Made by a program: the position numbers and the translations under genes | The notes under the pieces: model-generated | Seen by the model: the letters and a program-made list of their open reading frames with translations, nothing else | Told to the model about the DNA's origin: nothing | Databases searched by the model: none | From: Isoptericola sp. AK164 | GTDB lineage: Bacteria > Actinomycetota > Actinomycetes > Actinomycetales > Cellulomonadaceae | DNA length: 64,000 nt | NCBI RefSeq assembly: GCF_029643425.1 | Contig: NZ_CP119106.1 | Coordinates: 62,001-126,000 of the forward strand | Reading direction: 5' to 3' | Shown: positions 22,163 to 46,721 of the stretch, in pieces | Position numbering within the stretch: position 1 is the stretch's first letter | Layout: each line of letters opens with the position of its first letter

Positions 22163-23488
22163 ATGATCGCCGCCTGGTTCACCCGCGCCCGGGAGTCGTT
22201 CTGGTTCCTGCCGACCGTCCTGGGCGTCGTCGCCCTGGTCGCCGCCAAGAGCCTCGTCGCCGTGGACCGCGTCCTGGCCGAGGCCGGGGTCACCGACGTG
22301 CCGATGCTCGACACCCTCAGCGCGGCCGGGAGCAGGGCGGTGCTCACGGCGATCTCGGGGTCGGTCCTGACCGTCGCCGCGACGTCGTTCTCGATCACGA
22401 TCTCCGTGATGGCGACGACGTCGTCGGTGTACGGGCCGCGGCTGGTGCGCAACTTCATGGCCGACCGCGCCAACCAGGCGGTCCTGGCGGCCTTCACGGG
22501 CACCTTCCTCTACGCGCTGGTGGTGCTGGGCGACATCCACCCGGACGAGTCCGGGGAGCCGGTGCCGACGCTGGCGATCCACGCGGCGATCGTGCTGGCG
22601 GTGGTCAACGTCGCCGTGCTGGTGTTCTTCATCCACCACATCGCCCAGTCGGTGCAGGTCACGACGCTGGAGCAGCGGGTGCGGCAGGAGCTGGAGACGG
22701 CGGTGGACACGGTGTTCCCGGCCGAGCCGGCCGACCACCAGGTGCCGGCGGACCACCCGGTGCACGCTGTCGCCGAGTCGGCGGGGGAGCCGCAGGTGCG
22801 CGCGCGGAGCACCGGGTACGTCGAGCACGTCGACCTCGCGGCCCTCGTGCGGCGGGCGCGCGCCTGCGACGGCCTGATCGAGCTCGTCGTCGGCCCCGGT
22901 GACCACCTGGTCGAGGGGGAGCCCCTCGCGCGGGTGCGCGGCGACGTCGACGACCTCACCGAGGCCGTCCGCTCCGCCGTCGTCCTCGGGCCGGCTCGCA
23001 CCCCGCACCAGGACGTCGCCTTCGCGGTGCAGGACCTCACCGAGATGGCGGTGCGCGCCCTGTCGCCGGGGACCAACGACCCCTACACGGCCGCCTCCGC
23101 GCTGGACGCGCTCGGGACCGCGCTCGTCCGCGTCGTCTCCCGCTCCCCGGCGCCGCGCGGCCGTGCCGACGCTGAGGGCACGGTGCGCCTGGTCGTGCCG
23201 TGGCCGACGGCGGAGGAGCTCGTCCGGTCGGTCGTCACCGCCCTGCGCACCTACGGGCTGGGAGCGCCCGTCGCGCTCGACGCGCTGCTCCGGCTGCTCG
23301 ACCGGCTCGAGGGCGCGGCCCGGCGACCGGGTGTGCGCGCGGCGCTGCGCGACCAGGTGGAGGTGCTGCGGGCCGCCTACCTGGCGAGCGAGCCGTTGGA
23401 CGTGGACGCCGCCGCGGTGATGGACCGGCTGGACGCGTTGCGCGGACGCCTCACGACGGCGCCGGACCCGTCGACTCCCGCACGATGA
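22163..23488 (+). CDS. DUF2254 membrane protein
   Basis: 441 residues. Four N-terminal membrane segments (SFWFLPTVLGVVALVAAKSL, the ISGSVLTVAATSFSITISVM region, AVLAAFTGTFLYALVVLG, HAAIVLAVVNVAVLVFFI) followed by a cytoplasmic part with STGYVEHVDLAALVRRARA and ALSPGTNDPYTAASALD, the signatures of DUF2254. Function unknown. The 3' end overlaps the convergent regulator gene by 38 bp. ATG at 22163 precedes the first membrane segment directly. Confidence 0.88.
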   Translation: MIAAWFTRARESFWFLPTVLGVVALVAAKSLVAVDRVLAEAGVTDVPMLDTLSAAGSRAVLTAISGSVLTVAATSFSITISVMATTSSVYGPRLVRNFMADRANQAVLAAFTGTFLYALVVLGDIHPDESGEPVPTLAIHAAIVLAVVNVAVLVFFIHHIAQSVQVTTLEQRVRQELETAVDTVFPAEPADHQVPADHPVHAVAESAGEPQVRARSTGYVEHVDLAALVRRARACDGLIELVVGPGDHLVEGEPLARVRGDVDDLTEAVRSAVVLGPARTPHQDVAFAVQDLTEMAVRALSPGTNDPYTAASALDALGTALVRVVSRSPAPRGRADAEGTVRLVVPWPTAEELVRSVVTALRTYGLGAPVALDALLRLLDRLEGAARRPGVRAALRDQVEVLRAAYLASEPLDVDAAAVMDRLDALRGRLTTAPDPSTPAR

Positions 23489-24626
23489 GCTGCGGGCTGA
23501 TGGCCACGCGGTGCACGGGCCGGGCGGGGTCGGCCAGGCGGCGTGCCACCAGGTCGACGGCGGCGCGGCCCACCCAGGCCCGCGGCGGCCGGACCGCCGT
23601 CAGGGCCGGGCTGAACAGCTCGGCCACCTCGTCGTCGTAGGAGGCGACGGACAGGTCGCCCGGGACGGAGAGACCGTGGTCCACGGCGCGCTGCACCACG
23701 GCCGAGGCCTCCGGGTCCGAGTGCACCAGCAGCGCCGTCGTGCCGGAGGCCACGACGGTCTCGACGACCTCGTCGACGACGCCCGCGAACTCCGGGGTGC
23801 GGCGGTCGGGGGCGAGGCGTTCGAAGTGCTCGTCGGTGGTCAGCCCGAGCTCGGCGCAGGCCGCACGCCACCCCGCGGCCACCTTCCGGGACGTGGGGGA
23901 CTGGCGCGACAGCACGAGGCCGACGCGGCGGTGGCCGAGGTCGGCCAGGTGGTGCACCGCCATCAGGGCGCCGAGGGCGTGGTCGGAGACGACCGACTCC
24001 AGGGCCTCCCGGTGCGGGGCCAGGGCGGCCTCGCGCTCGACGAGGACGTGCGGCAGCCCGCTGTCGACCAGCCACCGCGCGGCCTCGGCGCCGTGGCCGG
24101 CGTCGGTCCGCGGGGCCACGATCAGGGCGTCGGCCGCCACCGACCGGGCCAGCCGCTCCAGCGTGGGGCGTTCGTCCGTCGTGTCGTAGGAGGACCCGCG
24201 CAGGACGATCCGCAGGCCGTGGCGGCGGGCCTCGACCTCCATGCCGCGCACGACCCCGGGCCAGTAGTAGTCGAGCGAGGGCACGAGGACACCGATCGTC
24301 CCCGTGCTCGAGGCCGGGCCGACCGCGCCGGGGGTGTCCGACGGCGTCGCCGACGGCGCGGGCCCGGTGCCCGGGGCTGCCGGCGGTCCGGGCGCCCGGC
24401 CCGCCGGTGCCCCCGGGGTGCCCACCGCCACCGCGCCGCCGTGCACGCGCCGCAGCAGCCCCTCGCTCTCGAGCTGGCCGATGTCCCGGCGGATCGTCAC
24501 CGCGGTGACGTCGAGCTCGGCGGTCAGGTCGGCGACGCGGACGACGCCGTCGCGTTCCAGCGCCGCGAGCAGGTGTGCGCGGCGCTCCGCCGGGAGCGTG
24601 GAGCGGTGTTCGGGCCCGGAGCTCAC
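23451..24626 (-). CDS. Hybrid transcriptional regulator: DeoR-type HTH with LacI-type sugar-sensing domain (first paralogue)
   Basis: 391 residues. The N-terminal DeoR-type winged HTH (residues 12-68) includes RVADLTAELDVTAVTIRRDI and LLRRVHGGAVAV. An Ala/Pro/Gly-rich linker covers about 70-110. A periplasmic-binding-protein-like sensor (IGVLVPSLDYYWPGVVRGME, HLADLGHRRVGLVLS, SVASYDDEVAELFSPALTAV) ends in LIVRESTG, as in LacI/GalR proteins. It is divergent from the GH59-like gene, and a direct-repeat operator lies between them (24807-24826). A close paralogue sits at 34387-35511. Likely a repressor released by a sugar or uronate from the locus; the ligand is inferred only. Confidence 0.9.
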   Translation of the reverse strand: MSSGPEHRSTLPAERRAHLLAALERDGVVRVADLTAELDVTAVTIRRDIGQLESEGLLRRVHGGAVAVGTPGAPAGRAPGPPAAPGTGPAPSATPSDTPGAVGPASSTGTIGVLVPSLDYYWPGVVRGMEVEARRHGLRIVLRGSSYDTTDERPTLERLARSVAADALIVAPRTDAGHGAEAARWLVDSGLPHVLVEREAALAPHREALESVVSDHALGALMAVHHLADLGHRRVGLVLSRQSPTSRKVAAGWRAACAELGLTTDEHFERLAPDRRTPEFAGVVDEVVETVVASGTTALLVHSDPEASAVVQRAVDHGLSVPGDLSVASYDDEVAELFSPALTAVRPPRAWVGRAAVDLVARRLADPARPVHRVAISPQLIVRESTGPAPS

Positions 24627-24749
24627 ACGTCCTCCTCGATCGACGGCGCCGGCCGGCGCGCACGGTGCTGGAGGTCAGGGTGCCACGACCGGGCAGCGAG
24701 GGAGACGAGCCCGCGCCGTGATCGGTTCTGATCACCCCCGTGTGATCCG

Positions 24750-24806: not shown

Positions 24807-24826
24807 AAACGATCAATAACGATCAT
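24807..24826. promoter_or_regulatory. Operator of the hybrid regulators, copy 1
   Basis: AAACGATCAATAACGATCAT, two AACGATC direct repeats with a 10-bp period. The same arrangement (17 of 20 positions identical) recurs at 37499-37518 in the lyase/DUF2264 divergent promoter. The downstream position relative to the promoter fits repression. Binding by the neighbouring DeoR/LacI-type hybrids is inferred. Confidence 0.7.
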
Positions 24827-24909
24827 ACCAGGAGTGGCGCACGAGCGGCACCGCGGCCCTCGACGACGTGGCTCGCGGTGCCGGGACTTCAACGGGGAAG
24901 GAACGACCC

Positions 24910-27900
24910 ATGAGACGACCACGCGCGTCACGCGCCGCCGTGTCGGGTCTGCTCACGAGCAGCCTGCTGGCCGCCACGCTCACCGCGACGGCTCTGCCGA
25001 GCGCGGCCGCCGAGCTGCCCGAGACCGTCGATGCCGCCGCCCACCTCGGCGCCGGCACGGTCGCCGGCACCTCGCTGCCCGCGACGCTGAGCGACGGCAC
25101 CACGGACCACCCGGTGACCTGGGAGATCGACGCCGACACGTTCGCCGTGCCGTACACGACCGTGCCGGTGACCGGCACCGTCGACGGCGGCACCGTGACC
25201 GCGCAGGTCGAGGTGCTGGCACCGGCCGAGAACCCGCTGGTCTACTTCGTCGACGCGGGCCGGAACGGCGACTCCCAGGACCGTCCCTACTCGACCGGGC
25301 CGACGCCGTCGCGCGCGTTCAGCGCCGTGACCACCCTGGACGACGGCACGCTCGTGAACGACGTGCCCGACCAGGAGTTCGTCGACGGCGAGACGACCTG
25401 GGGCTGGACCTCGGACGCCCAGGACAACTACAAGATCTCCGTCACCGGCGGTGACCCCGACCCGTACGACGTCGACACGCTCGCCGCCTACGACAAGTAC
25501 GAGCTCGGCGCGCGCACCAACGGCGACGCGATCACCTTCCGCCTGGACCTCGACCCGGGGACGTACACGCTGTCCAGCGGCTTCTTCGAGTTCTACACGG
25601 GTGGTCAGGACCGCCTGCGCGGCATCACGCCCGTGATCACGTACACGGTCGACGGGGCCGAGCAGAGCACCACCCTCGACGAGGCCACGCTGAGCACCCC
25701 GGCCGGCACCGAGAGCCGGCTGCTCGAGACCGACGCGTTCGAGATCCCCGCCGGTGCCACCGACGTCCGGCTCGCGTACACCCGGACCGCCGGCGAGGCA
25801 CCCTCGCTGAGCTGGTTCGCCGTCGCCGCCGGGGACGCCGAGGAGACGATCGACGAGGCCGCGCACGCCGTGCCCGCCGTGACCACCGACATCACCGTCG
25901 ACGGCGCCGACGTCGCCGCCGACAACGTCCACGGCCTGACCTTCAAGGGCTTCGGCGTCCTCAGCGCCAACTCCACCAGCGCCGTCCTGCTCGACTACAA
26001 GTCGGAGCACCCCGAGAAGTACGCCGAGATGCTGCGGATCCTCTTCGGTGGCGACCACCCGGTCATGCGCCACGTGAAGATCGAGATGGGCGACGACCGC
26101 AACAACTCCACCGGCTCCGACGTCGCCACGATGCGGACCCCCGACGAGCCCGCCAACGTGCGGCGGCACCCCGGCTTCCAGCTGGCCGCCGACGCGATCG
26201 CCGTGAACCCGGACGTCCAGGTGTCGATCCTGCGCTGGAACGCCGTGCCCTGGGCGGACACGAACGACAAGATCTACGACTGGTACAAGAACACGATCCT
26301 GGCCGCGTACCGCGAGTACGGGTACATGGTCGACTACGTGAACCCGGGGGTGAACGAGCACGCCGCCGACCTGGGCTGGACGAAGGAGTACGCCGAGCGC
26401 GTGCGCACCGACAGCACGGGCTACGTCAGCGACGACGCCGGGCTCGCCGGCTTCCGGGACGGCGAGGCGGAGCTGTTCCACCAGATCCAGGTCGTCATCT
26501 CCGACGAGGTCGGCACCGGCACCTTCGGCGACGAGATGGTCGCCGACGCCGCGCTGCGCGAGGCCGTCGACGTCGCGGGCTTCCACTACAACACCAACGA
26601 CGACGGCGGCGGGCACTTCACGCGGCTCGCGGAGGAGTTCGACACCGAGATCTGGAACTCCGAGGCGCAGGCGACCTTCAGCAACTCCTCCTTCCGCCAG
26701 AACAACAACGTCGCCGACCCGACCTCCGAGGGCACCGGCATCGGCGGCACCGGCAGCTCGCTGGAGATGGCGAACACGATCGTCAAGGGGTTTGTGAACT
26801 CGCGGCGCACGCACTTCGTGTACCAGCCGGCCATCGGCTCGTTCTACGAGGGCGGGCAGTACTCCTTCAAGGAGCTCGTCAGCGCCCGCGACCCGTGGTC
26901 GGGGTGGATGCACTACGACGCCGGCCTGGCCGTGCTGCAGCACTTCTCGAGCTTCGCGGTCACCGGGTGGGAGAACGCCGACAACACCGCGGGCGTCTGG
27001 CGCGCCGTGCCCGAGGCGAGCACCACGACCGCGTCGGGCACCAACCCGGTGAACGGCCGCAACGGCGGTCCGAACTATCTGACCCTGGCCGCCCCGGACG
27101 CGTCGGACTTCTCCACCGTGCTGGTCAACGACTCGGAGTTCCCGCGCGCCTACCGGATCACGCCGGAGAACCTCGACCTCGGCGCCGACCCGACGCTCGC
27201 CGTCTGGGAGACCCGGGCCGCCGAGGACGGCGAGGCGTTCGACTCCCGCTACAAGCAGCACGTCGCCGACCTGACGGCCGACCTCGACGGCGCGTACACC
27301 CTCACCGTCGCGCCGTTCTCCATCGCCACGGTGACGTCGCTCGACGTCACCGGTGACGCGGGCTGGACCACGCCGCTGCCGGTCGAGGGCGAGCGCACCG
27401 TGCTCGACGCGCGTCCCGAGGAGGGCGTGCTCTGGTCCGACGACTTCGACTACACCGGCAAGACCGTGCCGGTCGTCGGGGTCGAAGGCACGCTGACCGA
27501 CGAGACCGAGGACTTCACCGCCTCCCGCGGCGGCGACACCGGCGCGATCCCGCTGTACACCTGGGACCGCAACGGTTCCTTCGAGGCGTTCCTGGCCGAC
27601 GACGGCGAGCGGGTGCTGCGCCAGCAGGTCGACCGGGAGGGCACCGGCGTCGGCGGCGCGTGGAACGGCGGCGACCCGATCACCGCCGTCGGCGACCGCC
27701 GGTGGACGAACTACCGGGCCACCGTCGACGTCCGCTTCGAGCGGGCCGCCGCGAGCGACAACTACGCGGTGCTCGGCGCCCGTTCCAGCGGGGGCGGCAG
27801 CTCGAACAACCTGAACGGGACGCCGTACGCGCTCAAGCTCGTGTCCGACGGCACCTGGCAGCTCGTGCGGTACGGCACGGTGCTGGAGTCGGGCAGCCTC

Positions 27901-29994
27901 GACGGGTTCGACGCCGCGGCGTGGCACGAGCTGTCGGTCCGGGCCGCGGGCGACGAGATCACCGGCTGGATCGACGGCGACGAGGTGTTCTCCTGGACCG
28001 ACCCGTCCCCGGTGCTGTCCGGCTGGGTCGACCTGGCCAGCGGGTTCCACTGGACGCAGTTCGACGACCTGACCGTCGAGCGCGTCGACGACGAGGTGCC
28101 GCACTACGGCGAGTACCTCGACGGCCTCGAGACGAACGACCTGGCCGACCCGCCCGCCACGGAGCTCGTCTACGGCGGCGAGTGGCGGCACGCGAACGGC
28201 GGCTCCATGTACGAGTACATGCGGTCCACCTCGACCAGCCAGGGCGAGGGCGCGTCGCTGACGTACACCTTCACCGGCTCCGGCCTGGACGTGCTGGGGC
28301 CGAACGACGGCTCCGCCCGCCTCGACGTCACCGTCGACGGGGAGCCCGTGGCGGTCAACGCCGCGACGCGGGACGCCGGGCACTTCCAGCAGGCGTTCGA
28401 GCTGCGGGGACTGCCGTGGGGCGAGCACACCGTCACCCTGACGGTCACCTCGGGGACCCTCCTGGTCGACGCCGTCGGCGTGATCTCCTCCCCGGCGTCG
28501 GGGGCGACGGACGCCGCGGCGCTCGCCGAGGCGGTGGCTGCGGCCGAGGCCGTGGAGCGCACCGACGACTTCACGGACACCGACTGGGCCGTGCTGCAGC
28601 GCAACGTGGCCGACGCCCGGGCGGCCGTCGCGGACCCGGGGGCCTACCGGCTCACGGGCCACGGCGCCGACCAGCTCGTCGACCGGCTCCGGGCCGCCTC
28701 CGCGCCGGTCGCGGCGCGGATCGTCGGGATCGAGCCGGTCTCGACCGCGACCTACGTCGGCGAGACCCCGTCGGGTCTGCCGGAGACGCTCGAGGCCGAG
28801 CTCGCCGACGGCACCACGCGGGAGGTCCCGATCACCTGGGACCTGGACTCCGTCTCCTTCGACGACGAGTGGGCCACCGTCCTGGTGCCCGGCTCCTACG
28901 GGGTCGCGACCACGCAGGCACGGGTCGAGGTCGTCCCGACCGGGACCGTGGCGTTCGCCGACGTCAACGGCACCGCGGACGGGACCCTCGGGTACGACTC
29001 GCCGTCGTACCTCGCGATCGACGGTCTCGTCGGGGGGCTGCTCAACGAGTCGCCCGACCAGGTCCGCACCGACGGGGCCGACTGGGGCCACTGGGGGCAG
29101 AACGCCGGCGGCAACCGCGCGATCAACTACAAGGGCATCGTCGCGGGCGACTACTCCAAGACGTCCACCACGGGGATGTACACCAGCAACCAGGTCGGGG
29201 CCGAGGTGTCGTACACCATCACCCTCCCGGCCGGGTCGCACACGATCGTGGCCGAGTCGCACACCTGGTGGGCGGCCTGGTCCCGCAGCGCCGACGTGTT
29301 CCTCGACTACGACGGCGAGAGCCACGAGGTCGGGTCGTTCACCCTCGACACGGGCAACCCGACCGAGCTGCTGAGCCACGACGTCGAGCTGGCCGAGGAC
29401 GGGCCGGTGACGATCCGGCTGCGGGCGACGAACAACCAGTCGCCGATGCTGTCCTGGGCGGCGGTCGTCACGCCGCCGGTGGAGGTGACGCCGGAGCGTC
29501 CGACCTGGACCGACGAGTGCGGTCCGGCCAACGTCACGGGTGCTCCCTTGCCCGTCGTCGAGGGCGTCGAGTACGTCGAGACCCGCAAGGGCGACGGTGG
29601 GGTGAAGGTCGTGGCGACGCCGTTGCCCGGCTACGTCCTGACGGACAAGCCCTCGCCGACGAAGAACCCGGACTCGTGGACGTGGACGAAGGGCGACTCC
29701 GGGCTGCCGTGCTGGGACGCCGGCACCCGCTACGAGGCGGGTGACCTGGTGGGTCTGGACGGATCGCTGTGGGAGGCCCTGCGGGAGTCCGAGGCGAAGC
29801 GTCCGGGCGAGCACGCGAACGGCCCGTGGCAGGAGATCGTCGAGACCGCCGACGGCACGGCGGTCTGGACGGAGTCGCGGGTGTTCGTCGCCGGTGACGT
29901 GGTGGTGGCCGACGGCGAACGCTGGGTCGCCCTGCACCGTACCCGCGGGCAGGTGCCGGCCGAGTCGCCGGACCACTGGGCACCCGAGGAGTGA
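24910..29994 (+). CDS. Secreted multimodular glycoside hydrolase, GH59 (galactocerebrosidase)-like
   Basis: 1694 residues. Signal peptide with cleavage near A34. Then an Ig-like domain (35-110), a beta-sandwich module (about 110-320) and a catalytic region (about 327-840). The layout matches galactocerebrosidase: RHVKIEMGDDRNNSTGS, acid/base candidate E483 (VNPGVNEHAADLG), nucleophile candidate E585 (EIWNSEAQATFS), and RDPWSGWMHYDAGLAVLQHF. A lectin-like domain ends in GFHWTQFDDLTVER (843-1060). Further modules are a sandwich domain (1088-1195), a FIVAR-like helix pair (1203-1265), an Ig-like domain (1270-1343) and a malectin-like domain (1347-1523). Two CBM5/12-like aromatic motifs (AGTRYEAGDLVGLDGSLWEA; ESRVFVAGDVVVADGERWVA) close the protein. 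A beta-galactosidase-type activity on an extracellular glycan is inferred. The start at 24910 is set by GGAAGGAA and the signal peptide. Confidence 0.88.
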   Translation: MRRPRASRAAVSGLLTSSLLAATLTATALPSAAAELPETVDAAAHLGAGTVAGTSLPATLSDGTTDHPVTWEIDADTFAVPYTTVPVTGTVDGGTVTAQVEVLAPAENPLVYFVDAGRNGDSQDRPYSTGPTPSRAFSAVTTLDDGTLVNDVPDQEFVDGETTWGWTSDAQDNYKISVTGGDPDPYDVDTLAAYDKYELGARTNGDAITFRLDLDPGTYTLSSGFFEFYTGGQDRLRGITPVITYTVDGAEQSTTLDEATLSTPAGTESRLLETDAFEIPAGATDVRLAYTRTAGEAPSLSWFAVAAGDAEETIDEAAHAVPAVTTDITVDGADVAADNVHGLTFKGFGVLSANSTSAVLLDYKSEHPEKYAEMLRILFGGDHPVMRHVKIEMGDDRNNSTGSDVATMRTPDEPANVRRHPGFQLAADAIAVNPDVQVSILRWNAVPWADTNDKIYDWYKNTILAAYREYGYMVDYVNPGVNEHAADLGWTKEYAERVRTDSTGYVSDDAGLAGFRDGEAELFHQIQVVISDEVGTGTFGDEMVADAALREAVDVAGFHYNTNDDGGGHFTRLAEEFDTEIWNSEAQATFSNSSFRQNNNVADPTSEGTGIGGTGSSLEMANTIVKGFVNSRRTHFVYQPAIGSFYEGGQYSFKELVSARDPWSGWMHYDAGLAVLQHFSSFAVTGWENADNTAGVWRAVPEASTTTASGTNPVNGRNGGPNYLTLAAPDASDFSTVLVNDSEFPRAYRITPENLDLGADPTLAVWETRAAEDGEAFDSRYKQHVADLTADLDGAYTLTVAPFSIATVTSLDVTGDAGWTTPLPVEGERTVLDARPEEGVLWSDDFDYTGKTVPVVGVEGTLTDETEDFTASRGGDTGAIPLYTWDRNGSFEAFLADDGERVLRQQVDREGTGVGGAWNGGDPITAVGDRRWTNYRATVDVRFERAAASDNYAVLGARSSGGGSSNNLNGTPYALKLVSDGTWQLVRYGTVLESGSLDGFDAAAWHELSVRAAGDEITGWIDGDEVFSWTDPSPVLSGWVDLASGFHWTQFDDLTVERVDDEVPHYGEYLDGLETNDLADPPATELVYGGEWRHANGGSMYEYMRSTSTSQGEGASLTYTFTGSGLDVLGPNDGSARLDVTVDGEPVAVNAATRDAGHFQQAFELRGLPWGEHTVTLTVTSGTLLVDAVGVISSPASGATDAAALAEAVAAAEAVERTDDFTDTDWAVLQRNVADARAAVADPGAYRLTGHGADQLVDRLRAASAPVAARIVGIEPVSTATYVGETPSGLPETLEAELADGTTREVPITWDLDSVSFDDEWATVLVPGSYGVATTQARVEVVPTGTVAFADVNGTADGTLGYDSPSYLAIDGLVGGLLNESPDQVRTDGADWGHWGQNAGGNRAINYKGIVAGDYSKTSTTGMYTSNQVGAEVSYTITLPAGSHTIVAESHTWWAAWSRSADVFLDYDGESHEVGSFTLDTGNPTELLSHDVELAEDGPVTIRLRATNNQSPMLSWAAVVTPPVEVTPERPTWTDECGPANVTGAPLPVVEGVEYVETRKGDGGVKVVATPLPGYVLTDKPSPTKNPDSWTWTKGDSGLPCWDAGTRYEAGDLVGLDGSLWEALRESEAKRPGEHANGPWQEIVETADGTAVWTESRVFVAGDVVVADGERWVALHRTRGQVPAESPDHWAPEE

Positions 29995-30992: not shown

Positions 30993-30999
30993 GCGGCCC

Positions 31000-31028
31000 A
31001 CGATAGCGCACAGGTGAACTCATGTTAA
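31000..31028 (-). promoter_or_regulatory. Promoter of the MpaB-like gene, probably leaderless
   Basis: On the minus strand TTAACA (31028-31023), a 17-bp spacer and TATCGT (31005-31000). The start is expected at about 30993, on the ATG itself. Confidence 0.55.
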
Positions 31029-31058
31029 CTTAGCGATCGTCCGCCGGGTGCCGGACAC

Positions 31059-31114: not shown

Positions 31115-31134
31115 CGGCGCGGTGGTGCCACCGG

Positions 31135-39625: not shown

Positions 39626-40954
39626 ATGAAGCGCACGATCCCCACCGCGGCCGGTGCGGCCGCCGCGGTCGTCCTGGCCCTGACCGCGTGCAGCGGCGGC
39701 ACCGCCGACGAGGCCGGTGGCGGCGGCGGTGACGACACCGCGGCGCCCGCCGAGGACGAGGCCGTCACGTTGTCCCTGGCCGGGTGGAGCCTGTCGACCA
39801 CGCCGGAGTTCCAGACCCTCGCGGACGCGTTCCACGAGGAGAACCCGAACGTGACCGTCGAGCTCCAGGAGTATGACGCCTCGGAGTACGACACCCAGAT
39901 GACCGCCGACCTGGCGGCCGGCAGCGCCCCCGACATGTACGTGCTGAAGAACCTCAAGAACTTCTGGACGTACTACGACGGCGCGCAGCTCCTCGACGTC
40001 TCCGACGTCACCGCCGAGCTCGACCCGGCTACCGGCGGCGCCGACTTCTACGAGGTCGACGGCGCGAGCTGGGCGGTGCCCTACCGCCAGGACTCCTGGT
40101 TCCTCTACTACAACCAGGACCTGTTCGACGAGGCCGGCGTGGACGCCCCGGACGGCTCGTGGACCTGGGACGACTACGTCACCGCGGCGCAGGACGTCAC
40201 CGAGGGGCTCGGGGACAGCGACGCGCTCGGCGCCTACCAGCACTCCTGGCAGTCCGTGGTGCAGGGCTTCGCCCTGGCCCAGAGCGAGGGCGCCGAGCTC
40301 ACCAGCGGCGACTTCGGCTACCTCGAGCCGTTCTACGACCGTGCCGTCGAGCTGCAGGACAGCGATGCCCAGGTCGACTTCGGCACCGTGACCACGAACC
40401 AGCTCACCTACCAGGCGCAGTTCGGCACCCAGCAGGCCGCCATGATGCCGATGGGCTCCTGGTACGTGGCCACGCTGCTGGCGCAGCAGGAGTCCGGCGA
40501 CGCCGACGAGTTCAACTGGGGCATGGCCCCGATCCCGCAGGTCGACTCCTCGACCACCGGCATGGACGCCACCCCGGTGACGTTCGGCGACCCGACCGGT
40601 CTGGGCATCAACCCGGCCATCGACGAGGCCAAGGTCGACGCCGCGAAGGAGTTCCTGGCCTTCGCCGCCGGTGAGGGCGGCGCGGACGCGCTCGCCGCGA
40701 TCGGCATCACCCCGGCCCTGCTGAGCGACGGCGTCGTGGACACCTACTTCGGCCTCGACGGGGTCCCGGGCGACGAGCTGTCGCAGTTCGCGTTCGCCAC
40801 GCACGACACCCGCCCGGAGAACCCGGTCGACCCGGACACCGCCGCCCTGCAGAACATCCTGGGCGACACCCACTCGGAGATCATGTCCGAGTCGTCGTCC
40901 GTGGCCGACGCGATCGCCGGCGCCGAGGACCGCGCCGCCTCCGAGGTCGGCTGA
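39626..40954 (+). CDS. ABC transporter sugar-binding lipoprotein
   Basis: 442 residues. Lipoprotein signal peptide with lipobox LTAC and lipidated C22, a Gly/Asp-rich linker, then an extracellular solute-binding protein family 1 fold: LADAFHEENPNVTVELQEYD, LAAGSAPDMYVLKNLKNFW, WAVPYRQDSWFLYYNQDLFD, QQAAMMPMGSWYVATLL. It would capture oligosaccharides for the two permeases downstream. AAGGAGAG is well spaced before the ATG. Its stop codon (40952-40954) marks the exact start of an 88-bp tandem duplication that separates it from the permeases. Confidence 0.95.
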   Translation: MKRTIPTAAGAAAAVVLALTACSGGTADEAGGGGGDDTAAPAEDEAVTLSLAGWSLSTTPEFQTLADAFHEENPNVTVELQEYDASEYDTQMTADLAAGSAPDMYVLKNLKNFWTYYDGAQLLDVSDVTAELDPATGGADFYEVDGASWAVPYRQDSWFLYYNQDLFDEAGVDAPDGSWTWDDYVTAAQDVTEGLGDSDALGAYQHSWQSVVQGFALAQSEGAELTSGDFGYLEPFYDRAVELQDSDAQVDFGTVTTNQLTYQAQFGTQQAAMMPMGSWYVATLLAQQESGDADEFNWGMAPIPQVDSSTTGMDATPVTFGDPTGLGINPAIDEAKVDAAKEFLAFAAGEGGADALAAIGITPALLSDGVVDTYFGLDGVPGDELSQFAFATHDTRPENPVDPDTAALQNILGDTHSEIMSESSSVADAIAGAEDRAASEVG

Positions 40955-41126: not shown

Positions 41127-41140
41127 CTGACCCACAGGCT

Positions 41141-41175: not shown

Positions 41176-41205
41176 CCACCACACCGCCCAGACACAGGAG
41201 TCACC

Positions 41206-42168
41206 ATGGCGACGATCGCCGTCGACGACCGCAGCAGCGGGGCGTCCGGCCCGAGCCCCGCGGCCCCGCCCGGCCCCCGTCGGCGCCGGCCGGGCAGTCG
41301 GCTCAAGTTGCGCAACACCCTCATCGGGTGGAGCTTCATCCTGCCGAACTTCCTCGGCTTCGGTCTGCTGACCCTCATCCCCGTCGTCACGCTGTTCTAC
41401 CTGTCGCTGACGGAGTGGAACGTGTTCGGCGGCGCCGAGTTCATCGGCCTGGACAACTACACGCGGATGATCGGCGACACCAGCTATCACACCGCGCTGT
41501 TCAACACGATCTACTACTCCGCCGTCCACATCCCCGCCACGCTGGTGGCGTCGCTGGGCCTGGCGCTGCTGCTCAACCGCAAGCTGCGCGGCGTGGCGTT
41601 CTTCCGCACGGTGGCGTTCTTCCCGTACATCACCTCGATCGTCGCCATCGCCGTGGTGTGGAACATGCTGTTCAGCCCGGAGTACGGCCCGATCAACCAG
41701 TTCCTGACGTTCCTCGGTGTGGACGACCCGCCCGGGTGGACGACGTCGGCGGACTCCTCGATGCCCGCCGTGATCATCGTCGGCGTGTGGCGCGAGATGG
41801 GCTACTACATGCTGCTGCTGCTCGCCGGTCTGCAGACCGTGCCGGGCGAGCTCTACGAGGCCGCCCGCGTCGACGGCGCCGGCGCCTGGGGCCGTTTCTG
41901 GAACGTCACGCTGCCGTGCCTGCGCCCCACGATGTTCTTCGTCACCGTGATCCTGACGATCAACAGCCTCAAGGTCTTCGACCTCATCCTCGTCATGACC
42001 GACGGCGGACCCGGCCAGTCGACGCTGGTGCTGAGCCAGTTCATCTACTCCAAGGGCTTCGAGGAGAACCAGTTCGGGTACGCCTCCGCGGTGGCCGTGA
42101 CCCTGTTCTTCATCTGCATCGCCGTGACGATCTTCCAGTTCTTCTGGAACCGCAGGAAGGACGCCTGA
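41206..42168 (+). CDS. ABC transporter permease, MalF/UgpA type
   Basis: 320 residues with six membrane segments after a polar, Pro-rich N-terminus (FILPNFLGFGLLTLIPVVTL is the first). The EAA loop reads ELYEAARVDGAGAWGRFWNV, which docks to the ATPase. Typical first permease of carbohydrate (CUT1) importers. The start codon follows AGGAG by 6 nt. Stop overlaps the next gene's ATG (TGATG). No ATPase gene is present; a shared MsmK/UgpC-type ATPase elsewhere is expected. Confidence 0.95.
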   Translation: MATIAVDDRSSGASGPSPAAPPGPRRRRPGSRLKLRNTLIGWSFILPNFLGFGLLTLIPVVTLFYLSLTEWNVFGGAEFIGLDNYTRMIGDTSYHTALFNTIYYSAVHIPATLVASLGLALLLNRKLRGVAFFRTVAFFPYITSIVAIAVVWNMLFSPEYGPINQFLTFLGVDDPPGWTTSADSSMPAVIIVGVWREMGYYMLLLLAGLQTVPGELYEAARVDGAGAWGRFWNVTLPCLRPTMFFVTVILTINSLKVFDLILVMTDGGPGQSTLVLSQFIYSKGFEENQFGYASAVAVTLFFICIAVTIFQFFWNRRKDA

Positions 42169-43064
42169 TGACCACCGTCTCCCCGACGACCTCCGTCGAC
42201 GCGTCGACCTCGCCGCTGCGGCCCGCCCAGGTGCGCGCCCGGTGGAAGCGCCAGGCGTCCCGCGCCGTCGGCTACGCCGCGCTGCTCGTGGCCGCCGCCG
42301 GCATCCTGCTGCCGTTCGTGTGGATGGTCATCTCCTCGCTGAAGGAGAACAACCAGGTCTTCACCGTGCCGCTGCAGTGGATCCCGGATCCCGTGGTGTG
42401 GCAGAACTACATCGACATCTGGGCGAAGTCCGACATGGTCACCTGGATCAAGAACACGCTGATCCTGTCCGTGAGCGTGACGTTCCTGCAGGTGCTGACC
42501 GGCAGCTTCGCCGCCTACGGGTTCTCCAAGATGCGGTTCCCCGGCCGCGACGCGCTGTTCCTGCTGTACGTGGCGACCATCGCGGTGCCGTGGCAGGCGT
42601 ACATGATCCCGCAGTTCGTCATGCTCTCGAACATCGGGCTGTCGAACACCCTGTGGTCGATCCTGGCGCTGCAGACCTTCAGCGCGTTCGGCGTGTTCCT
42701 CATGAAGCAGTACTACGAGTCGATCCCGGAGTCGCTGTCCGAGGCGGCCCGGATCGACGGCATGAGCGAGTACGGCATCTGGCGGCGCATCATCCTGCCG
42801 CTGTCCACGCCGGCGATCGCCAGCCTGACGCTGCTGACCTTCGTCAACACCTGGAACGACTACCTCGGGCCGCTGATCTACCTGCGCAGCCCGGAGCTGT
42901 GGACGCTGCAGCTCGGTCTGCAGACGTTCGTCGGGCAGTACAACGCCGAGCACGCGCTCATCATGGCCGGCTCGGTGATCTCGGTGCTGCCGATCGCCGT
43001 GATCTTCCTGCTCGGGCAGAAGTTCTTCGTCCGCGGGATCGCCACCACGGGGGTCAAGGGATGA
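42168..43064 (+). CDS. ABC transporter permease, MalG/UgpE type
   Basis: 298 residues, six membrane segments: GYAALLVAAAGILLPFVWMV first, then the NTLILSVSVTFLQVLTGSFAAYGFSK region. EAA loop: SLSEAARIDGMSEYGIWRRI. Second permease of the CUT1 importer. Its ATG overlaps the preceding stop by one base, and its own TGA overlaps the next ATG, so the genes are translationally coupled. Confidence 0.95.
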   Translation: MTTVSPTTSVDASTSPLRPAQVRARWKRQASRAVGYAALLVAAAGILLPFVWMVISSLKENNQVFTVPLQWIPDPVVWQNYIDIWAKSDMVTWIKNTLILSVSVTFLQVLTGSFAAYGFSKMRFPGRDALFLLYVATIAVPWQAYMIPQFVMLSNIGLSNTLWSILALQTFSAFGVFLMKQYYESIPESLSEAARIDGMSEYGIWRRIILPLSTPAIASLTLLTFVNTWNDYLGPLIYLRSPELWTLQLGLQTFVGQYNAEHALIMAGSVISVLPIAVIFLLGQKFFVRGIATTGVKG

Positions 43065-43786
43065 GCACGAGCACCCGACACCAGGGCCGCCGTCGGCTCG
43101 TCAGCCAGGAGATGTACGAGACGGTGTTCGGCACCGTGTACATCGGGCTGGCCACCAACGTCCTGCTCGTGGTGGCCACGCTGCCGCTGCTCGTGGTGCT
43201 GCTGACCACCGACCCGACCGTGTCGTGGCCGGCGTTCGCGCTGCTCGCCCCGCTGCTGGCCCCGGCCCTGGTCGCGGCCTTCGCGGTCTTCACGGCGTTC
43301 TCCACCGACGGCTCGACCGCCGCGGTGCGGACCTTCTGGCGGGCCTACCGCCGGCACGCGCGCCGGGCGCTGGCGATCGGCGCGCTGGCGAGCGCCGCCG
43401 TCGTCGTCCTGGCCGTGGACGTCGTCGCCGTCTGGGGCGCACGGATCGGCGCCGCCGCGATCCCGGTGTTCGGCACCCTGCTGGTGCTGGCCGTGCTCAC
43501 CGCCCTGGTCGCGCTCGCCGCGATCCCGGTGCTGCCCGGGGTGCGGCTGCGCGACCTGCTGCGCACCAGCCTCTACCTCGCGGTGCGCCGCTGGTACCTC
43601 AGCGTCACCGCGCTGGCGGTGCTCGGCCTGCTCGCCGGCGTGGTGGTGACCAGCCCCGCCATCGGGCTCGGGTTCGCCACCGCACCCCTGCTGTTCGTCG
43701 TCTGGGGCGGTTGCCGCGTCGCGCTGCGGTCCGTCGTGCCCGACGGCGCCACCCCGGCCGCGCACGGCACCGCCGTCCCCTCCTGA
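43061..43786 (+). CDS. YesL-like (DUF624) membrane protein
   Basis: 241 residues with about six hydrophobic helices. The N-terminal YETVFGTVYIGLATNVLLVV and the following VFTAFSTDGSTAAVRTFWRAYRR match the DUF624/YesL pattern. YesL-type proteins are encoded with uronate and pectin oligosaccharide transporters in Firmicutes, where their role is undefined; a helper of import is plausible. Overlaps the permease by 4 nt (ATGA). Confidence 0.85.
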   Translation: MSTSTRHQGRRRLVSQEMYETVFGTVYIGLATNVLLVVATLPLLVVLLTTDPTVSWPAFALLAPLLAPALVAAFAVFTAFSTDGSTAAVRTFWRAYRRHARRALAIGALASAAVVVLAVDVVAVWGARIGAAAIPVFGTLLVLAVLTALVALAAIPVLPGVRLRDLLRTSLYLAVRRWYLSVTALAVLGLLAGVVVTSPAIGLGFATAPLLFVVWGGCRVALRSVVPDGATPAAHGTAVPS

Positions 43787-43828: not shown

Positions 43829-45121
43829 ATGTCCTCCACCGACGTGCGCGACTCCGCGCCGGGCGCCGACCCGCGACCTGCCGACCGCCCCGGGGCGCTC
43901 GCGGCCGCCGTCGACGCCGCCGTGGCCACCGTGCGCCGCAACGCGGCAGCGTTCGGCGCGCTGTACCCCGACTCCACGACCCGCGACGACCGCTACCCGC
44001 TGCGCCCGGCCACCGACCGGTTCGCCGAGGGCGCCAACCGCGACTGGACCACCAGCTTCTGGCCCGGCATGCAGTGGCGTGCCGTCGAGCTCACCGGTGA
44101 CGCCGACCTGCGGGCCGCCGCCCTGGCGCACGCCGCCGACTTCGCCCGCCGCGTGCACGCCGGGGAGGACCTCGACACCCACGACCTCGGGTTCCTGTAC
44201 ACGCTGTCCTGCGTCGACGCGTGGCGGCTGGCGGGCGACGAGGCCGCCCGGGACGCGGCGCTCGCGGCGGCGGACCACCTCATGACGCGGTTCCTGCCCT
44301 CGGCGGGGATCATCCAGGCGTGGGGCGACCTGTCCGACCCGGCCCAGCGCGGCCGGACCATCGTCGACAGCCTCATGAACATGCCGCTGCTGACCTGGGC
44401 GACCCAGGTCACCGGCGACCCGCGGTACGCCGACGTCGTGGCCCGGCACGTGGTGCAGGTGCGCACCCACCTGCTGCGCGACGACGACTCGACCTTCCAC
44501 ACCTTCTACTGGGACCCGGAGACGGGGGAGCCGCTGCGCGGCGGCACCGAGCAGGGTGCCGGCGACGACTCCTGCTGGGCGCGCGGGCAGGCGTGGGGCA
44601 TCTTCGGCTTCGCCCTGCACCACCGCACCTCGGGCGACCCGGAGTCGCTGCGGGCCTCGGAGCGCTGCGCCGAGTACTTCCTCGCGCACCTGCCCGCCGA
44701 CGGCGTGCCGTTCTGGGACCTGGTGTACTCCGACGGAGCGGACGCGCCGCGCGACTCGTCCTCCGGGGCGATCGCGGCCTGCGGCCTGCTGGAGCTCGCC
44801 TCGGTGTCGACCGACGCCGACCGCGCGGCCCGGTACGCCGCCGCCGCGCGGCGGATGGTCGCCGACCTGATCGCCGGGTACACCCCGGCCGCGCCCGAGG
44901 ACGCCGACGCGCTGCTGCTGCACTCGGTCTACGACGCCCCGAAGAACAAGGGTGTGGACGAGGGCTGCCTGTGGGGCGACTACTACTACCTGGAGGCGCT
45001 GACCCGCCTCACGCTGCCCGGCTGGGTCTCGCCCTGGTGGCCGGCCGCCGCGGCCGTGCCCACCCGCCTCACGCTGACCGCAGGCACGACCGCCACCGAC
45101 ACCGACGGAGGGACCGCATGA
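43829..45121 (+). CDS. GH88 unsaturated glucuronyl hydrolase
   Basis: 430 residues, no signal peptide. Removes 4,5-unsaturated uronic acid from the ends made by polysaccharide lyases, by hydration. Catalytic aspartates D119 (DTHDLGF) and D180 (TIVDSLMN) are spaced 61 residues, as in the Bacillus enzyme (88 and 149). Other marks are NRDWTTSFWPGMQW, GDDSCWARGQAWGIFGFA, FWDLVYSD and LWGDYYYLEAL. The pairing with KduI and KduD strongly indicates a uronate pathway. Overlaps kduD by 4 nt (ATGA). Confidence 0.94.
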   Translation: MSSTDVRDSAPGADPRPADRPGALAAAVDAAVATVRRNAAAFGALYPDSTTRDDRYPLRPATDRFAEGANRDWTTSFWPGMQWRAVELTGDADLRAAALAHAADFARRVHAGEDLDTHDLGFLYTLSCVDAWRLAGDEAARDAALAAADHLMTRFLPSAGIIQAWGDLSDPAQRGRTIVDSLMNMPLLTWATQVTGDPRYADVVARHVVQVRTHLLRDDDSTFHTFYWDPETGEPLRGGTEQGAGDDSCWARGQAWGIFGFALHHRTSGDPESLRASERCAEYFLAHLPADGVPFWDLVYSDGADAPRDSSSGAIAACGLLELASVSTDADRAARYAAAARRMVADLIAGYTPAAPEDADALLLHSVYDAPKNKGVDEGCLWGDYYYLEALTRLTLPGWVSPWWPAAAAVPTRLTLTAGTTATDTDGGTA

Positions 45122-45882
45122 TCCTCGACCAGTTCCGGCTCGACGGGAAGGTCGCGCTCGTGACGGGCACGAGCCGCGGCCTCGGCCAGGGCGCCGCCGT
45201 GGCGCTCGCCGAGGCCGGGGCCGACGTCGCGCTCCTGGACCGCAGCGAGCCCACCGAGACGATCTCCCGCATCAAGGCCCTGGGCCGCCGCGTGCACAGC
45301 GTGCAGCGGGACCTCGCCACGGCGACGGCGGAGGAGCTCGACGCCGCCGTCGCGGAGGTCGAGGACGTGCTCGGCCCGGTCGACGTGCTCGTCAACAACG
45401 CCGGCACCATCCGTCGGGCGCCGGCCGCCGAGCACACGGCCGAGGACTGGGACACGGTGCTGGCCGTCAACCTCGACGCCGTGTTCCACCTGTCCCGCGC
45501 CGTCGGGCGGGGCATGCTCGAGCGCGGGTCGGGGAGCATCGTCAACGTCGCCTCGATGCTGTCCTTCCAGGGCGGCATCCTCGTTCCCGGCTACGCGGCC
45601 TCCAAGCACGCCGTCGTCGGCCTGACCAAGGCGCTCGCCAACGAGTGGGCCGGGCGCGGCGTCAACGTCAACGCCGTCGCCCCCGGCTACATGGCCACCG
45701 ACAACACCGCCCCCATCCGGGCGGACGCCGAGCGGGAGCAGTCCATCTCGGCGCGCATCCCTGCCGGACGGTGGGGCACCCCGGAGGACCTCGCCGGGAT
45801 CTTCGTGTACCTCGCCTCGCCCGCCTCCGCCTACGTGCACGGCGCCGTCGTCCCCGTCGACGGCGGCTGGCTCGTGCGCTGA
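45118..45882 (+). CDS. kduD: 2-dehydro-3-deoxy-D-gluconate 5-dehydrogenase (KduD-type SDR)
   Basis: 254 residues. Short-chain dehydrogenase: TGTSRGLGQG nucleotide-binding loop (G17, G21, G23), NNAG at 93-96, catalytic S146, Y159 and K163 (GYAASKH). ILDQFRLDGKVALVTG, APGYMATDNTAPIRAD and ISARIPAGRWGTPEDLAG are typical of KduD rather than generic SDRs. It reduces 2,5-diketo-3-deoxygluconate to KDG. Lies between GH88 and kduI in one operon. KDG kinase and KDPG aldolase are not in the window. Confidence 0.92.
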   Translation: MILDQFRLDGKVALVTGTSRGLGQGAAVALAEAGADVALLDRSEPTETISRIKALGRRVHSVQRDLATATAEELDAAVAEVEDVLGPVDVLVNNAGTIRRAPAAEHTAEDWDTVLAVNLDAVFHLSRAVGRGMLERGSGSIVNVASMLSFQGGILVPGYAASKHAVVGLTKALANEWAGRGVNVNAVAPGYMATDNTAPIRADAEREQSISARIPAGRWGTPEDLAGIFVYLASPASAYVHGAVVPVDGGWLVR

Positions 45883-45902
45883 GCACCGACCGAAGGAGCA
45901 TC

Positions 45903-46721
45903 ATGGAACAGCGTTACGCCACCAACCCGGAGCAGATCCCCGGCCTGACGACGCAGGAGCTGCGCGACAAGTTCCTCGTCGAGGACCTCTTCGTGCCCGG
46001 CGAGGTCCGGACCGTCTACACCCACCACGACCGCATCGTCCTGGGCGGTGCCCTGCCCGGCGCCGAGCCGGTCGCGCTGCCGAACCCGGACGAGCTGCGC
46101 GCCGAGTACTTCCTGCAGCGCCGCGAGGTGGGGATCGTCAACGTCGGGTCCACGGGCACCGTCGTGGCCGACGGCGAGACCTACGAGATGCCGACCCGCT
46201 CCCTGCTGTACATCGGCAGCGGCACCCAGGACGTGACGTTCGCGGGGGAGGGCGCGGCGTTCTACCTGTTCTCCGCCCCGGCCCACACCTCGTACCCGAC
46301 CGTGCTGACGCTGCCCGGCGAGGGCAACACGCTCGAGCTCGGCGACCAGGTGACCTCGAACCGGCGTTCGCTGGAGCAGGTCGTGCACGCCAAGGGCGTG
46401 CAGTCCTGCCAGGTCGTCATGGGCGTCACGCGGCTGCACGAGGGCTCGATGTGGAACACCATGCCGGCGCACACCCACGACCGGCGCACCGAGTGCTACC
46501 TGTACTTCGACCTGCCGGCCGACGCCCGGGTGCTGCACCTGTGCGGCGAGCCGACCGAGACGCGGCACCTCACCGTGGCCGACCGCCAGGCGATCATCTC
46601 GCCGTCGTGGTCGGTGCACTCCGGGGTGGGGACGGCCAACTACTCGTTCGTGTGGGCGATGGCGGGGGAGAACCAGGACTTCACCGACATGGACGCGGTG
46701 CCGCCGACCGAGATCCGCTGA
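45903..46721 (+). CDS. kduI: 5-dehydro-4-deoxy-D-glucuronate isomerase
   Basis: 272 residues. Cupin isomerase that converts the open-chain unsaturated uronate product to 2,5-diketo-3-deoxygluconate, the KduD substrate. The zinc ligands match E. coli: H190 and H192 (MPAHTHDRRTE), E197, and H239 (SWSVHSGVG), all shifted by 6. RYATNPEQIPGLTTQELR is the usual N-terminus. GAAGGAG lies 6 nt before the ATG. Last gene of the uronate operon. Confidence 0.96.
   Translation: MEQRYATNPEQIPGLTTQELRDKFLVEDLFVPGEVRTVYTHHDRIVLGGALPGAEPVALPNPDELRAEYFLQRREVGIVNVGSTGTVVADGETYEMPTRSLLYIGSGTQDVTFAGEGAAFYLFSAPAHTSYPTVLTLPGEGNTLELGDQVTSNRRSLEQVVHAKGVQSCQVVMGVTRLHEGSMWNTMPAHTHDRRTECYLYFDLPADARVLHLCGEPTETRHLTVADRQAIISPSWSVHSGVGTANYSFVWAMAGENQDFTDMDAVPPTEIR

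What the first reader, a model, noticed from the sequence alone, without database searches (positions are those of the whole stretch)
23451..46721. Uronate-glycan utilisation locus with a GH59-like secreted enzyme
The sequence shows a lyase, GH88, KduI, KduD, DUF2264, CUT1 importer and YesL-like gene together, with a secreted GH59-like enzyme. Lyase to GH88 to KduI/KduD is an established unsaturated-uronate route. Adding a galactosidase-type GH59 and a DUF2264 enzyme suggests a glycan carrying both uronate and galactose-like residues rather than plain pectin or alginate. I know of no described actinobacterial pathway with this combination. The transporter ATPase, KDG kinase and KDPG aldolase are missing and must be elsewhere.
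Basis: partly seen in the sequence, partly recalled or inferred. Interest (0 to 1): 0.8.

Follow-up and report, generated by a model that had tools for sequence, protein, structure and literature searches.

The report
Conserved actinobacterial uronate-glycan utilisation locus
These genes look like a jointly switched system with which an actinobacterium imports and dismantles sugar chains carrying glucuronic acid, probably galactose-rich plant gums, using a lyase and a recently recognised kind of dehydratase that both feed one hydrolase.

Summary
They form two units, each with its own copy of a DeoR/LacI-type regulator (72% identical). A direct repeat, AACGATC-N3-AACGATC, occurs only twice in the 3.58 Mb genome at up to 1 mismatch: before the secreted GH59 gene, and between the lyase and DUF2264 genes. 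This ties GH59 to the uronate operon.

The lyase belongs to the PL33 lineage with its catalytic residues kept. DUF2264 matches the family recently reinterpreted from 'GH154 glucuronidase' to glucuronate dehydratase. Lyase and dehydratase probably both make unsaturated ends for GH88; KduD/KduI continue. KDPG aldolase and a PfkB kinase lie together elsewhere.

In 56 of 80 named actinobacterial loci the lyase sits with DUF2264, importer, DUF624, GH88 and KduD. Neighbours include exo-beta-1,3-galactanase-like GH43, GH30, GH35, GH51, galactose genes and, once beside GH59, rhamnose genes.

GlcA-capped type II arabinogalactan is the best-supported substrate (about 0.55). Glycosaminoglycans remain a live rival. 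No activity was measured.

The parts
23451..24626 (-). Regulator A: DeoR-type HTH plus LacI-type sugar-binding domain, divergent from GH59
   Evidence: Pfam HTH_DeoR 4e-14 and Peripla_BP_3 2.5e-34; 72% identical to regulator B
24808..24824 (+). Operator copy 1 (AACGATC-ATA-like N3-AACGATC direct repeat), about 60 bp before the GH59 start
   Evidence: one of only two genome matches at up to 1 mismatch
24868..29994 (+). Secreted-looking GH59-type enzyme, 1708 aa: GH59 catalytic domain, GH59 C-terminal lectin domain, Big_4, CBM5/12
   Evidence: Pfam; galactocerebrosidase 3zr5 1.2e-11 for the catalytic region; catalytic glutamates E497 and E599 invariant in 16 relatives; signal peptide by eye only
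30123..33999 (-). MPAB/Lcp oxygenase-like gene (30123-31001) and secreted-looking amidase (31135-33999); probable insertion, not part of the pathway
   Evidence: no hit between GH59 and the lyase unit in G005, G006, G007, G016
34387..35511 (-). Regulator B, paralogue of A; start overlaps the lyase stop
35508..37469 (-). PL33-lineage polysaccharide lyase, 653 aa, no signal peptide seen by eye
   Evidence: 8r75 1.6e-77; Foldseek top 10 hits are PL33 entries, 3.6e-36 best; N223, Y279, H444 equal the PL33 catalytic residues
37500..37516 (+). Operator copy 2, in the lyase/DUF2264 divergent promoter
37639..39555 (+). DUF2264 protein, predicted glucuronate dehydratase (family formerly GH154) plus a beta domain
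   Evidence: 9o4u 1.6e-24; Foldseek 8oi4 1.2e-11, 9o4u 2.0e-10; active-site residues kept
39626..40954 (+). Importer substrate-binding protein
   Evidence: PF01547 3.8e-30
41206..42168 (+). Importer permease 1
   Evidence: PF00528 6.9e-19; nearest NCBIfam model UgpA, below its cut-off
42168..43064 (+). Importer permease 2
   Evidence: Frame and start read; conserved in synteny
43061..43786 (+). DUF624 (YesL-like) membrane protein
   Evidence: PF04854 3.5e-4, below cut-off; conserved position
43829..45121 (+). GH88 unsaturated glucuronyl hydrolase
   Evidence: PF07470 4.9e-15; 1vd5 4.2e-94
45118..45882 (+). KduD, 2-dehydro-3-deoxy-D-gluconate 5-dehydrogenase
   Evidence: TIGR01832, 346.5 bits against a cut-off of 338.85
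45903..46721 (+). [quoted passage not shown]
   Evidence: NF002091, 395.1 bits against a cut-off of 250

Best explanation
A two-unit regulon for catabolism of glucuronic-acid-capped, galactose-rich glycans, most likely type II arabinogalactan (arabinogalactan proteins, gum-arabic type). Inferred sequence of steps: the secreted GH59 enzyme, in some relatives with an exo-beta-1,3-galactanase-like GH43, trims the galactan outside the cell. The importer takes up GlcA-ended oligosaccharides. Inside, the PL33-type lyase eliminates whatever sugar is 4-linked to GlcA (in gum arabic that cap is rhamnose), while the DUF2264 dehydratase eliminates water from uncapped terminal GlcA. Both give the same delta-4,5-unsaturated end, which GH88 removes. 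KduI and KduD turn the product into KDG, and a kinase and KDPG aldolase at another locus finish the route. The paralogous DeoR/LacI-type regulators control both units through the AACGATC-N3-AACGATC direct repeat. Shown here: gene content, family assignment, kept catalytic residues, operator uniqueness, conserved synteny. Inferred: every reaction, the substrate, the direction of regulation.
For: Operator: two matches in 3.58 Mb at up to 1 mismatch, reversed control 0; in 58 of 80 named loci within 350 bp upstream of the lyase, reversed control 0 of 80, against 10 elsewhere in 1.63 Mb; upstream of 8 of 29 GH59 genes, control 0 of 29; upstream of the GH43 that precedes GH59 in 3 of the 4 such loci with at least 350 bp held. 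GH59 and window-type PL33 (47% identity or more) co-occur: 14 of 43 against 5 of 353 genomes; GH59 lies next to the lyase unit in genera of four families. Dehydratase: best PDB hits by sequence and fold, with 7 of 8 aligned active-site residues kept (PMC12269599). Galactan context: GH43 and GH59 are adjacent on one strand (gaps -3 to 129 bp) in 6 of 12 GH59-bearing named loci; L134 GH43 matches exo-beta-1,3-galactanase structures (3vsf 4.4e-120; 7bys 'galactan 1,3-beta-galactosidase' 7.2e-61); GH30 in 5, GH35 in 3, a galT-galK-galE run in 5, GH51 in 2 of 80 loci; rhamnulokinase-like and RhaD genes directly beside GH59 in Nocardioides terrae. [quoted passage not shown] The window genome holds a GH43 63% identical to the one lying between GH59 and the lyase unit in Isoptericola sp. 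BMS4.
Against: The five PL33_1 enzymes assayed in PMC11848413 all acted on glycosaminoglycans (parts 1-3 of 6 seen). PL8 lyases also co-occur with window-type PL33, weakly: 8 of 43 against 31 of 353, p 0.046. GH43_24-like enrichment is itself modest (10 of 43 against 28 of 353, p 0.0038) and the window genome has no match to that query at 1e-20. Most of the 80 loci carry none of the galactan-type neighbours. Rhamnose genes were seen beside only one locus. The operator was not found before 21 of 29 GH59 genes. No beta-galactosidase for the final Gal residue is in the window locus, and GH59 specificity is unknown.
Confidence: 0.55

Rival explanations
1. The target is a glycosaminoglycan (chondroitin, hyaluronan or heparosan). 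The cytoplasmic PL33 lyase cuts imported oligosaccharides, the dehydratase converts leftover terminal GlcA, and GH88 cleaves, as in Bacteroides caccae PUL25; GH59 is an accessory enzyme for another residue.
For: All five PL33_1 enzymes assayed act on glycosaminoglycans (PMC11848413); the PL + GH88 + dehydratase trio is biochemically shown for chondroitin (PMC12269599); the window lyase keeps W227, equivalent to the W242 reported invariant in PL33_1; a more distant PL33 group in the same order co-occurs strongly with PL8, 12 of 17 genomes against 27 of 379.
Against: The window genome has no PL8. No hexosaminidase, GH109 or sulfatase was recognised among the accessory proteins looked at beside the core, though only about 20 representatives were scanned by Pfam or NCBIfam. 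GH59 shares the operator, and galactan, galactose and arabinose genes recur beside the operon.
Confidence: 0.22
2. The target is a bacterial or algal exopolysaccharide holding GlcA and Gal (gellan-, xanthan- or colanic-acid-like), not a plant gum.
For: PL33 includes a gellan lyase, though in subfamily PL33_2 (PMC11848413); the hosts are soil, marine and plant-surface genera (titles); GH88 is close to enzymes that act on several unsaturated disaccharides.
Against: Exo-beta-1,3-galactanase-like GH43, GH30_2, GH51 and AbfB-bearing GH43 neighbours fit arabinogalactan better.
Confidence: 0.18
3. GH59 is an unrelated neighbour that happens to lie near a uronate operon.
For: GH59 is far from the lyase in 10 of the 19 strong GH59 genomes of the order sample, and 4 kb of unrelated genes separate them in this window.
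Against: Shared operator unique in the genome, paralogous regulator beside each unit, adjacency in four families, co-occurrence 14 of 43 against 5 of 353.
Confidence: 0.05

Closest known systems
Bacteroides caccae PUL25 (PL35 + GH88 + glucuronate dehydratase BcGDH + GH109), PMC12269599
   Same: A lyase and a dehydratase of the former GH154 family both make unsaturated GlcA ends for one GH88.
   Different: Here the lyase is PL33, the enzymes look cytoplasmic behind an ABC importer, there is no GH109, KduD/KduI are in the operon, and the co-regulated secreted enzyme is GH59.
PL33 lyases BT4410 and BcellWH2_04512, PMC11848413
   Same: Fold and catalytic N/Y/H kept; about 26-28% identity over the full length.
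   Different: No signal peptide seen, different genomic setting, activity unknown. The one actinobacterial PL33 assayed (Curtobacterium sp., described with the PL33_2 group) was inactive on that paper's panel.
BT_3677, founding member of the former GH154 family
   Same: Same dehydratase family; [quoted passage not shown]
   Different: Bacteroides enzyme; the window protein was not compared with its sequence directly.
Gum arabic L-rhamnose-alpha-1,4-D-glucuronate lyases, PL27 and PL42 (PMC8377490, passages)
   Same: The reaction proposed here for the lyase; PL27 also has an (alpha/alpha)6 barrel and a beta-sandwich.
   Different: Different lyase families; reported as Bacteroides or fungal enzymes.
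Streptobacillus moniliformis glycosaminoglycan ABC import locus (recalled; seen only as a citation in PMC13260240)
   Same: ABC import of unsaturated uronate disaccharides followed by GH88.
   Different: Glycosaminoglycan substrate; its gene content was not examined here.

Membership tests
PL33 polysaccharide lyase | Full-length homology and two-domain toroid plus beta fold | tested here: met
   8r75 1.6e-77 over residues 20-639; AlphaFold model mean pLDDT 79.8; ten best Foldseek hits all PL33 entries
PL33 polysaccharide lyase | Catalytic N238, Y291, H444 (BT4410 numbering) | tested here: met
   N223, Y279, H444 in the window protein, invariant in 10 aligned relatives
PL33 subfamily 1 | W at the W242 position (V in PL33_2) | tested here: met
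   W227; a single residue, no tree with characterised PL33 was built
PL33 polysaccharide lyase | Zinc site and lyase activity on a uronate polymer | not tested
   Zinc ligands were not mapped; activity needs the bench
Glucuronate dehydratase (former GH154, DUF2264) | Homology to BcGDH and 8oi4 | tested here: met
   1.6e-24 and 2.7e-23; Foldseek ranks 1-7 are 8oi4, 9o4u or 9nwf chains
Glucuronate dehydratase (former GH154, DUF2264) | Ten BcGDH active-site residues | tested here: met
   Of 8 inside the alignment 7 are kept (N161, W162, F165, Y213, R268, Y272, Y334) and N176 is I; E74 and R78 lie outside it, though E61 and R65 have the same spacing and are invariant in 12 sequences
Glucuronate dehydratase (former GH154, DUF2264) | Dehydration of terminal GlcA | not testable with these tools
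   Needs a 232 nm or mass-spectrometric assay
GH59 | Catalytic domain homology and the acid/base and nucleophile glutamates | tested here: met
   PF02057 1.3e-73 over 293 of 294 positions; E497 (N-E motif) and E599 invariant in 16 sequences; the nucleophile aligns with GALC, the acid/base was matched by eye
GH59 | Beta-galactosidase activity | not testable with these tools
   No bacterial GH59 characterisation was found in the listings
KduI and KduD | Score above curated equivalog cut-off | tested here: met
   NF002091 395.1/250; TIGR01832 346.5/338.85
Complete ABC sugar importer | SBP, two permeases and an ATPase | tested here: inconclusive
   SBP and two permeases present; no ATPase in the locus and none sought in the genome
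Type II arabinogalactan utilisation locus | Exo-beta-1,3-galactanase and beta-1,6-galactan enzymes with uronate removal | tested here: inconclusive
   Related loci carry them; the window locus has only GH59, and the genome has a GH43 relative at 3.33 Mb but no match to the L134 exo-galactanase query at 1e-20

The most novel reading that the evidence does not exclude
This PL33 clade is an intracellular exolyase that removes the 4-O-cap from glucuronic acid at the end of arabinogalactan side chains: rhamnose in Rha-alpha-1,4-GlcA-beta-1,6-Gal, or even methanol from 4-O-methyl-GlcA. Together with the DUF2264 dehydratase it would form a 'universal uncapping' pair in which sugar, methoxyl or hydroxyl at C4 is lost by the same beta-elimination, so that one GH88 suffices for every cap. 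It would be a third Rha-GlcA lyase family beside PL27 and PL42, and the first in Actinomycetota known to me.
Probability: 0.2. Interest if true: 0.75.

Novelty: new variant of a known kind. Interest (0 to 1): 0.5.

Why it matters
If right, a widespread actinobacterial operon still largely annotated as DUF2264, heparinase-like protein and YesL gets a coherent function: removal of glucuronate caps from plant gums by elimination instead of hydrolysis. It extends the lyase/dehydratase/GH88 logic, shown so far in Bacteroidota for chondroitin and (with an unrelated dehydratase) ulvan, to Gram-positive importers. It gives bacterial GH59 a testable role. And it offers a sharp regulon marker, a 17-bp direct repeat, for finding further members in other genomes.

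Tried and rejected
GH4 family PF02056 was searched by mistake for GH59 (PF02057); no match, not used. DUF2264 gave no paper by that name; the link came through PDB hits and PMC12269599. The P29_PDnc ulvan dehydratase was considered as the model for DUF2264, but PMC12269599 states the two are unrelated in sequence. The reading that DUF2264 is a galactosidase (8oi4 title) was set aside because PMC12269599 disputes hydrolase activity for that family. The idea that amidase and MPAB belong to the pathway was dropped. A GH43 cluster of 10 loci was partly a domain artefact: Ricin-B domains joined GH43 and GH5 proteins; on rechecking, GH43 of this kind is in 8 loci (L067, L068, L069, L071, L072, L098, L134, L142), of which L068, L071, L098 and L134 were confirmed by Pfam, and GH5 + Ricin-B is in 4 (L078, L110, L134, L142). 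The Curtobacterium PL33 result was first taken as support for a non-GAG role; the paper describes that enzyme with the PL33_2 group, so it says little about this protein. Searches for a published actinobacterial version: (title/abstract listings unless a paper is named) gave none, which is not proof of absence.

Rows dropped before counts: 23 of 42 GH59 genomes with weaker matches than E 1e-60 were left out of the co-occurrence table. PL33 genomes were split by identity at 47% by me (43 and 17 of 60). L006 (27% identity in the first alignment), L010 and L012 (lyase) and L079 (GH59) were left out of alignments. The 80 named loci are the best 80 of 236 confirmed relatives and include five of the unnamed congeners (L065, L066, L071, L098, L101), so the two sets overlap. 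Genomes of one genus are not independent, so the Fisher p values are only indicative.
Full report
Setting. The window lies at C1:62001-126000 of a 3,576,703-base single-contig genome.

Gene map. From left to right: regulator A (23451-24626, minus), GH59 (24868-29994, plus), an MPAB/Lcp oxygenase-like gene and a secreted-looking amidase (30123-33999, minus), regulator B (34387-35511, minus), lyase (35508-37469, minus), DUF2264 (37639-39555, plus), SBP, two permeases, DUF624, GH88, KduD, KduI (to 46721), followed by Flp/Tad pilus genes. Signal peptides were judged by eye: GH59 and amidase look secreted, the SBP looks like a lipoprotein, and lyase, DUF2264, GH88, KduD and KduI show none.

The lyase. 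Pfam sees only a weak heparinase II/III C-terminal domain (7.9e-6). Against the PDB it matches four PL33 sequences at 1.4e-71 to 1.6e-77 over nearly the whole length and PL35 enzymes far more weakly. The AlphaFold model (mean pLDDT 79.8) has PL33 entries as its ten best Foldseek hits. N238, Y291 and H444 of BT4410, named as catalytic in PMC11848413 (parts 1-3 of 6 seen), align with N223, Y279 and H444; Y470 and F475 are also kept. All are invariant in the ten-sequence alignment. W227 at the W242 position fits PL33_1.

DUF2264. The three PDB hits are two 'beta-D-glucuronate dehydratase' entries and 8oi4, titled a GH154 beta-galactosidase. PMC12269599 (abstract, passages, sections 9 and 10 seen) shows that BcGDH dehydrates terminal GlcA so that GH88 can act, that BT_3677 also dehydrates methyl glucuronate, and argues that the former GH154 family are dehydratases. 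Seven of the eight BcGDH active-site residues that fall in the phmmer alignment are kept in the window protein and are invariant in its relatives.

GH59. The catalytic domain matches PF02057 over 293 of 294 positions and galactocerebrosidase weakly. Two glutamates, E497 after an asparagine and E599, are invariant in 16 relatives. The family name suggests galactose specificity; nothing here tests it.

One regulon. Regulators A and B are 72% identical with nearly the same recognition helix. The promoter before GH59 and the one between lyase and DUF2264 share AACGATC-N3-AACGATC. In the whole genome this occurs twice at up to one mismatch, at exactly these places, and the reversed control pattern does not occur. 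In the 80 named loci, 58 have it (up to two mismatches) within 350 bp upstream of the lyase, the reversed control 0 of 80; outside those regions there are 10 matches in 1.63 Mb. It precedes 8 of 29 GH59 genes examined, including G381 where GH59 and the lyase lie on different contigs. In three of four loci where a GH43 gene precedes GH59 in the same direction and at least 350 bp upstream are held, the repeat precedes the GH43. Direct repeats suit DeoR-type regulators (recalled).

Synteny. Within the genus the lyase is in 9 of 18 genomes and GH59 in 7 of 18; in 6 of those 7 they are on one contig and within about 9 kb. Four congeners have GH59 on the far side of regulator B with no amidase or MPAB hit between. 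In a sample of 396 genomes of the order, 60 have a PL33 relative and 19 a strong GH59; 18 of the 19 have PL33. The same arrangement with GH59 recurs in three further families: G168, G126, G140; G147; G060. Window-type PL33 (43 genomes) and GH59 co-occur 14 of 43 against 5 of 353. Of the 80 named loci, DUF2264 is in 76, GH88 in 61, KduD in 57 and KduI in 47; 71 have DUF2264, SBP, both permeases and DUF624, 56 of these also GH88 and KduD, and 46 all nine genes; ends of contigs and my simple gene caller lower these counts.

Substrate clues. Beside the core in the named loci I found GH59 (12 of 80), exo-beta-1,3-galactanase-like GH43 (8 of 80 after correction), GH30 of the PF14587 type (5), GH35 (3), a galT-galK-galE run (5) and GH51 arabinofuranosidases (2). 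The L134 GH43 matches 3vsf at 4.4e-120 and galactan 1,3-beta-galactosidases; the more divergent L068 GH43 matches the same group at 2.1e-17 to 1.6e-10. GH43 and GH59 are neighbours on one strand in 6 of the 12 GH59-bearing named loci, gaps -3 to 129 bp. In Nocardioides terrae the gene after GH59 is rhamnulokinase-like (best model TIGR02627, below its cut-off) and the next is RhaD (TIGR02632, above cut-off although cut by the locus end). Only about 20 accessory proteins were scanned by Pfam or NCBIfam; others were grouped by BLAST or read by eye. Most loci carry none of these neighbours.

Evidence against. The five PL33_1 enzymes assayed in print act on glycosaminoglycans. PL8 co-occurs weakly with window-type PL33 (8 of 43 against 31 of 353) and strongly with a more distant PL33 group (12 of 17 against 27 of 379). 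The GH43 query is enriched only moderately with window-type PL33 (10 of 43 against 28 of 353) and is absent from the window genome at 1e-20; what that genome holds is a GH43 at C1:3330678-3333638 that is 63% identical to the GH43 of Isoptericola sp. BMS4 and about 31% to L134.

Downstream steps. A KDPG aldolase (PF01081, 8.1e-70) is followed by a PfkB kinase (1.4e-20), with a divergent IclR-type regulator, at about C1:536729-538490. Whether the kinase phosphorylates KDG is inferred from this pairing.

Verdict. The uronate route is well supported, GH59 belongs to the regulon, and arabinogalactan is the best but unproven substrate. It is a new variant of a known kind: the lyase/dehydratase/GH88 logic known from Bacteroidota, in an actinobacterial import operon with a PL33 lyase and a GH59 partner.

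Noticed in passing
window 30021-30083: A perfect 28-bp inverted repeat with a 7-base loop between GH59 and the MPAB-like gene, at one edge of the probable insertion; no T run follows it. Only this one pair occurs in the window.
   Followed up: partly
window 40955-41205: An 88-bp tandem duplication followed by a strong GC-rich stem-loop between the SBP and permease 1 genes, perhaps damping expression of the permeases relative to the SBP.
   Followed up: partly
45 of 80 named loci, e.g. L074:1791-2678: A fumarylacetoacetate-hydrolase-family gene sits between KduD and GH88 in 45 of 80 loci but not in the Isoptericola locus of the window; nearest NCBIfam model is 2,4-didehydro-3-deoxy-L-rhamnonate hydrolase, below cut-off. 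It may mark an alternative, non-phosphorylating end to the pathway.
   Followed up: partly
30 of 80 named loci, e.g. L081:12996-14588: A hexapeptide acyltransferase-like protein of about 550 aa with an unassigned C-terminal part follows the regulator gene; role unknown.
   Followed up: no
order sample of 396 genomes: A more distant PL33 group (33-43% identity to the window lyase) co-occurs strongly with PL8 lyases, 12 of 17 against 27 of 379, suggesting a separate glycosaminoglycan- or xanthan-type role.
   Followed up: partly
window genome C1:3330678-3366771 (L145-L147): A second glycan region with a GH43 + F5/8C protein, two GH127 beta-L-arabinofuranosidase-like genes, two ABC importers and several very large secreted-looking proteins.
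   Followed up: partly
L019 and L149 (Isoptericola sp. BMS4): The lyase keeps only the SBP gene as its divergent neighbour, while another DUF2264-SBP-permease set lies about 30 kb away with a 2-hydroxyacid-dehydrogenase-like gene and a sulfatase-like gene (labels by eye).
   Followed up: no
L069 (Cellulosimicrobium sp. CUA-896): GH59 appears as two overlapping reading frames in this draft contig, a frameshift or an assembly error.
   Followed up: no
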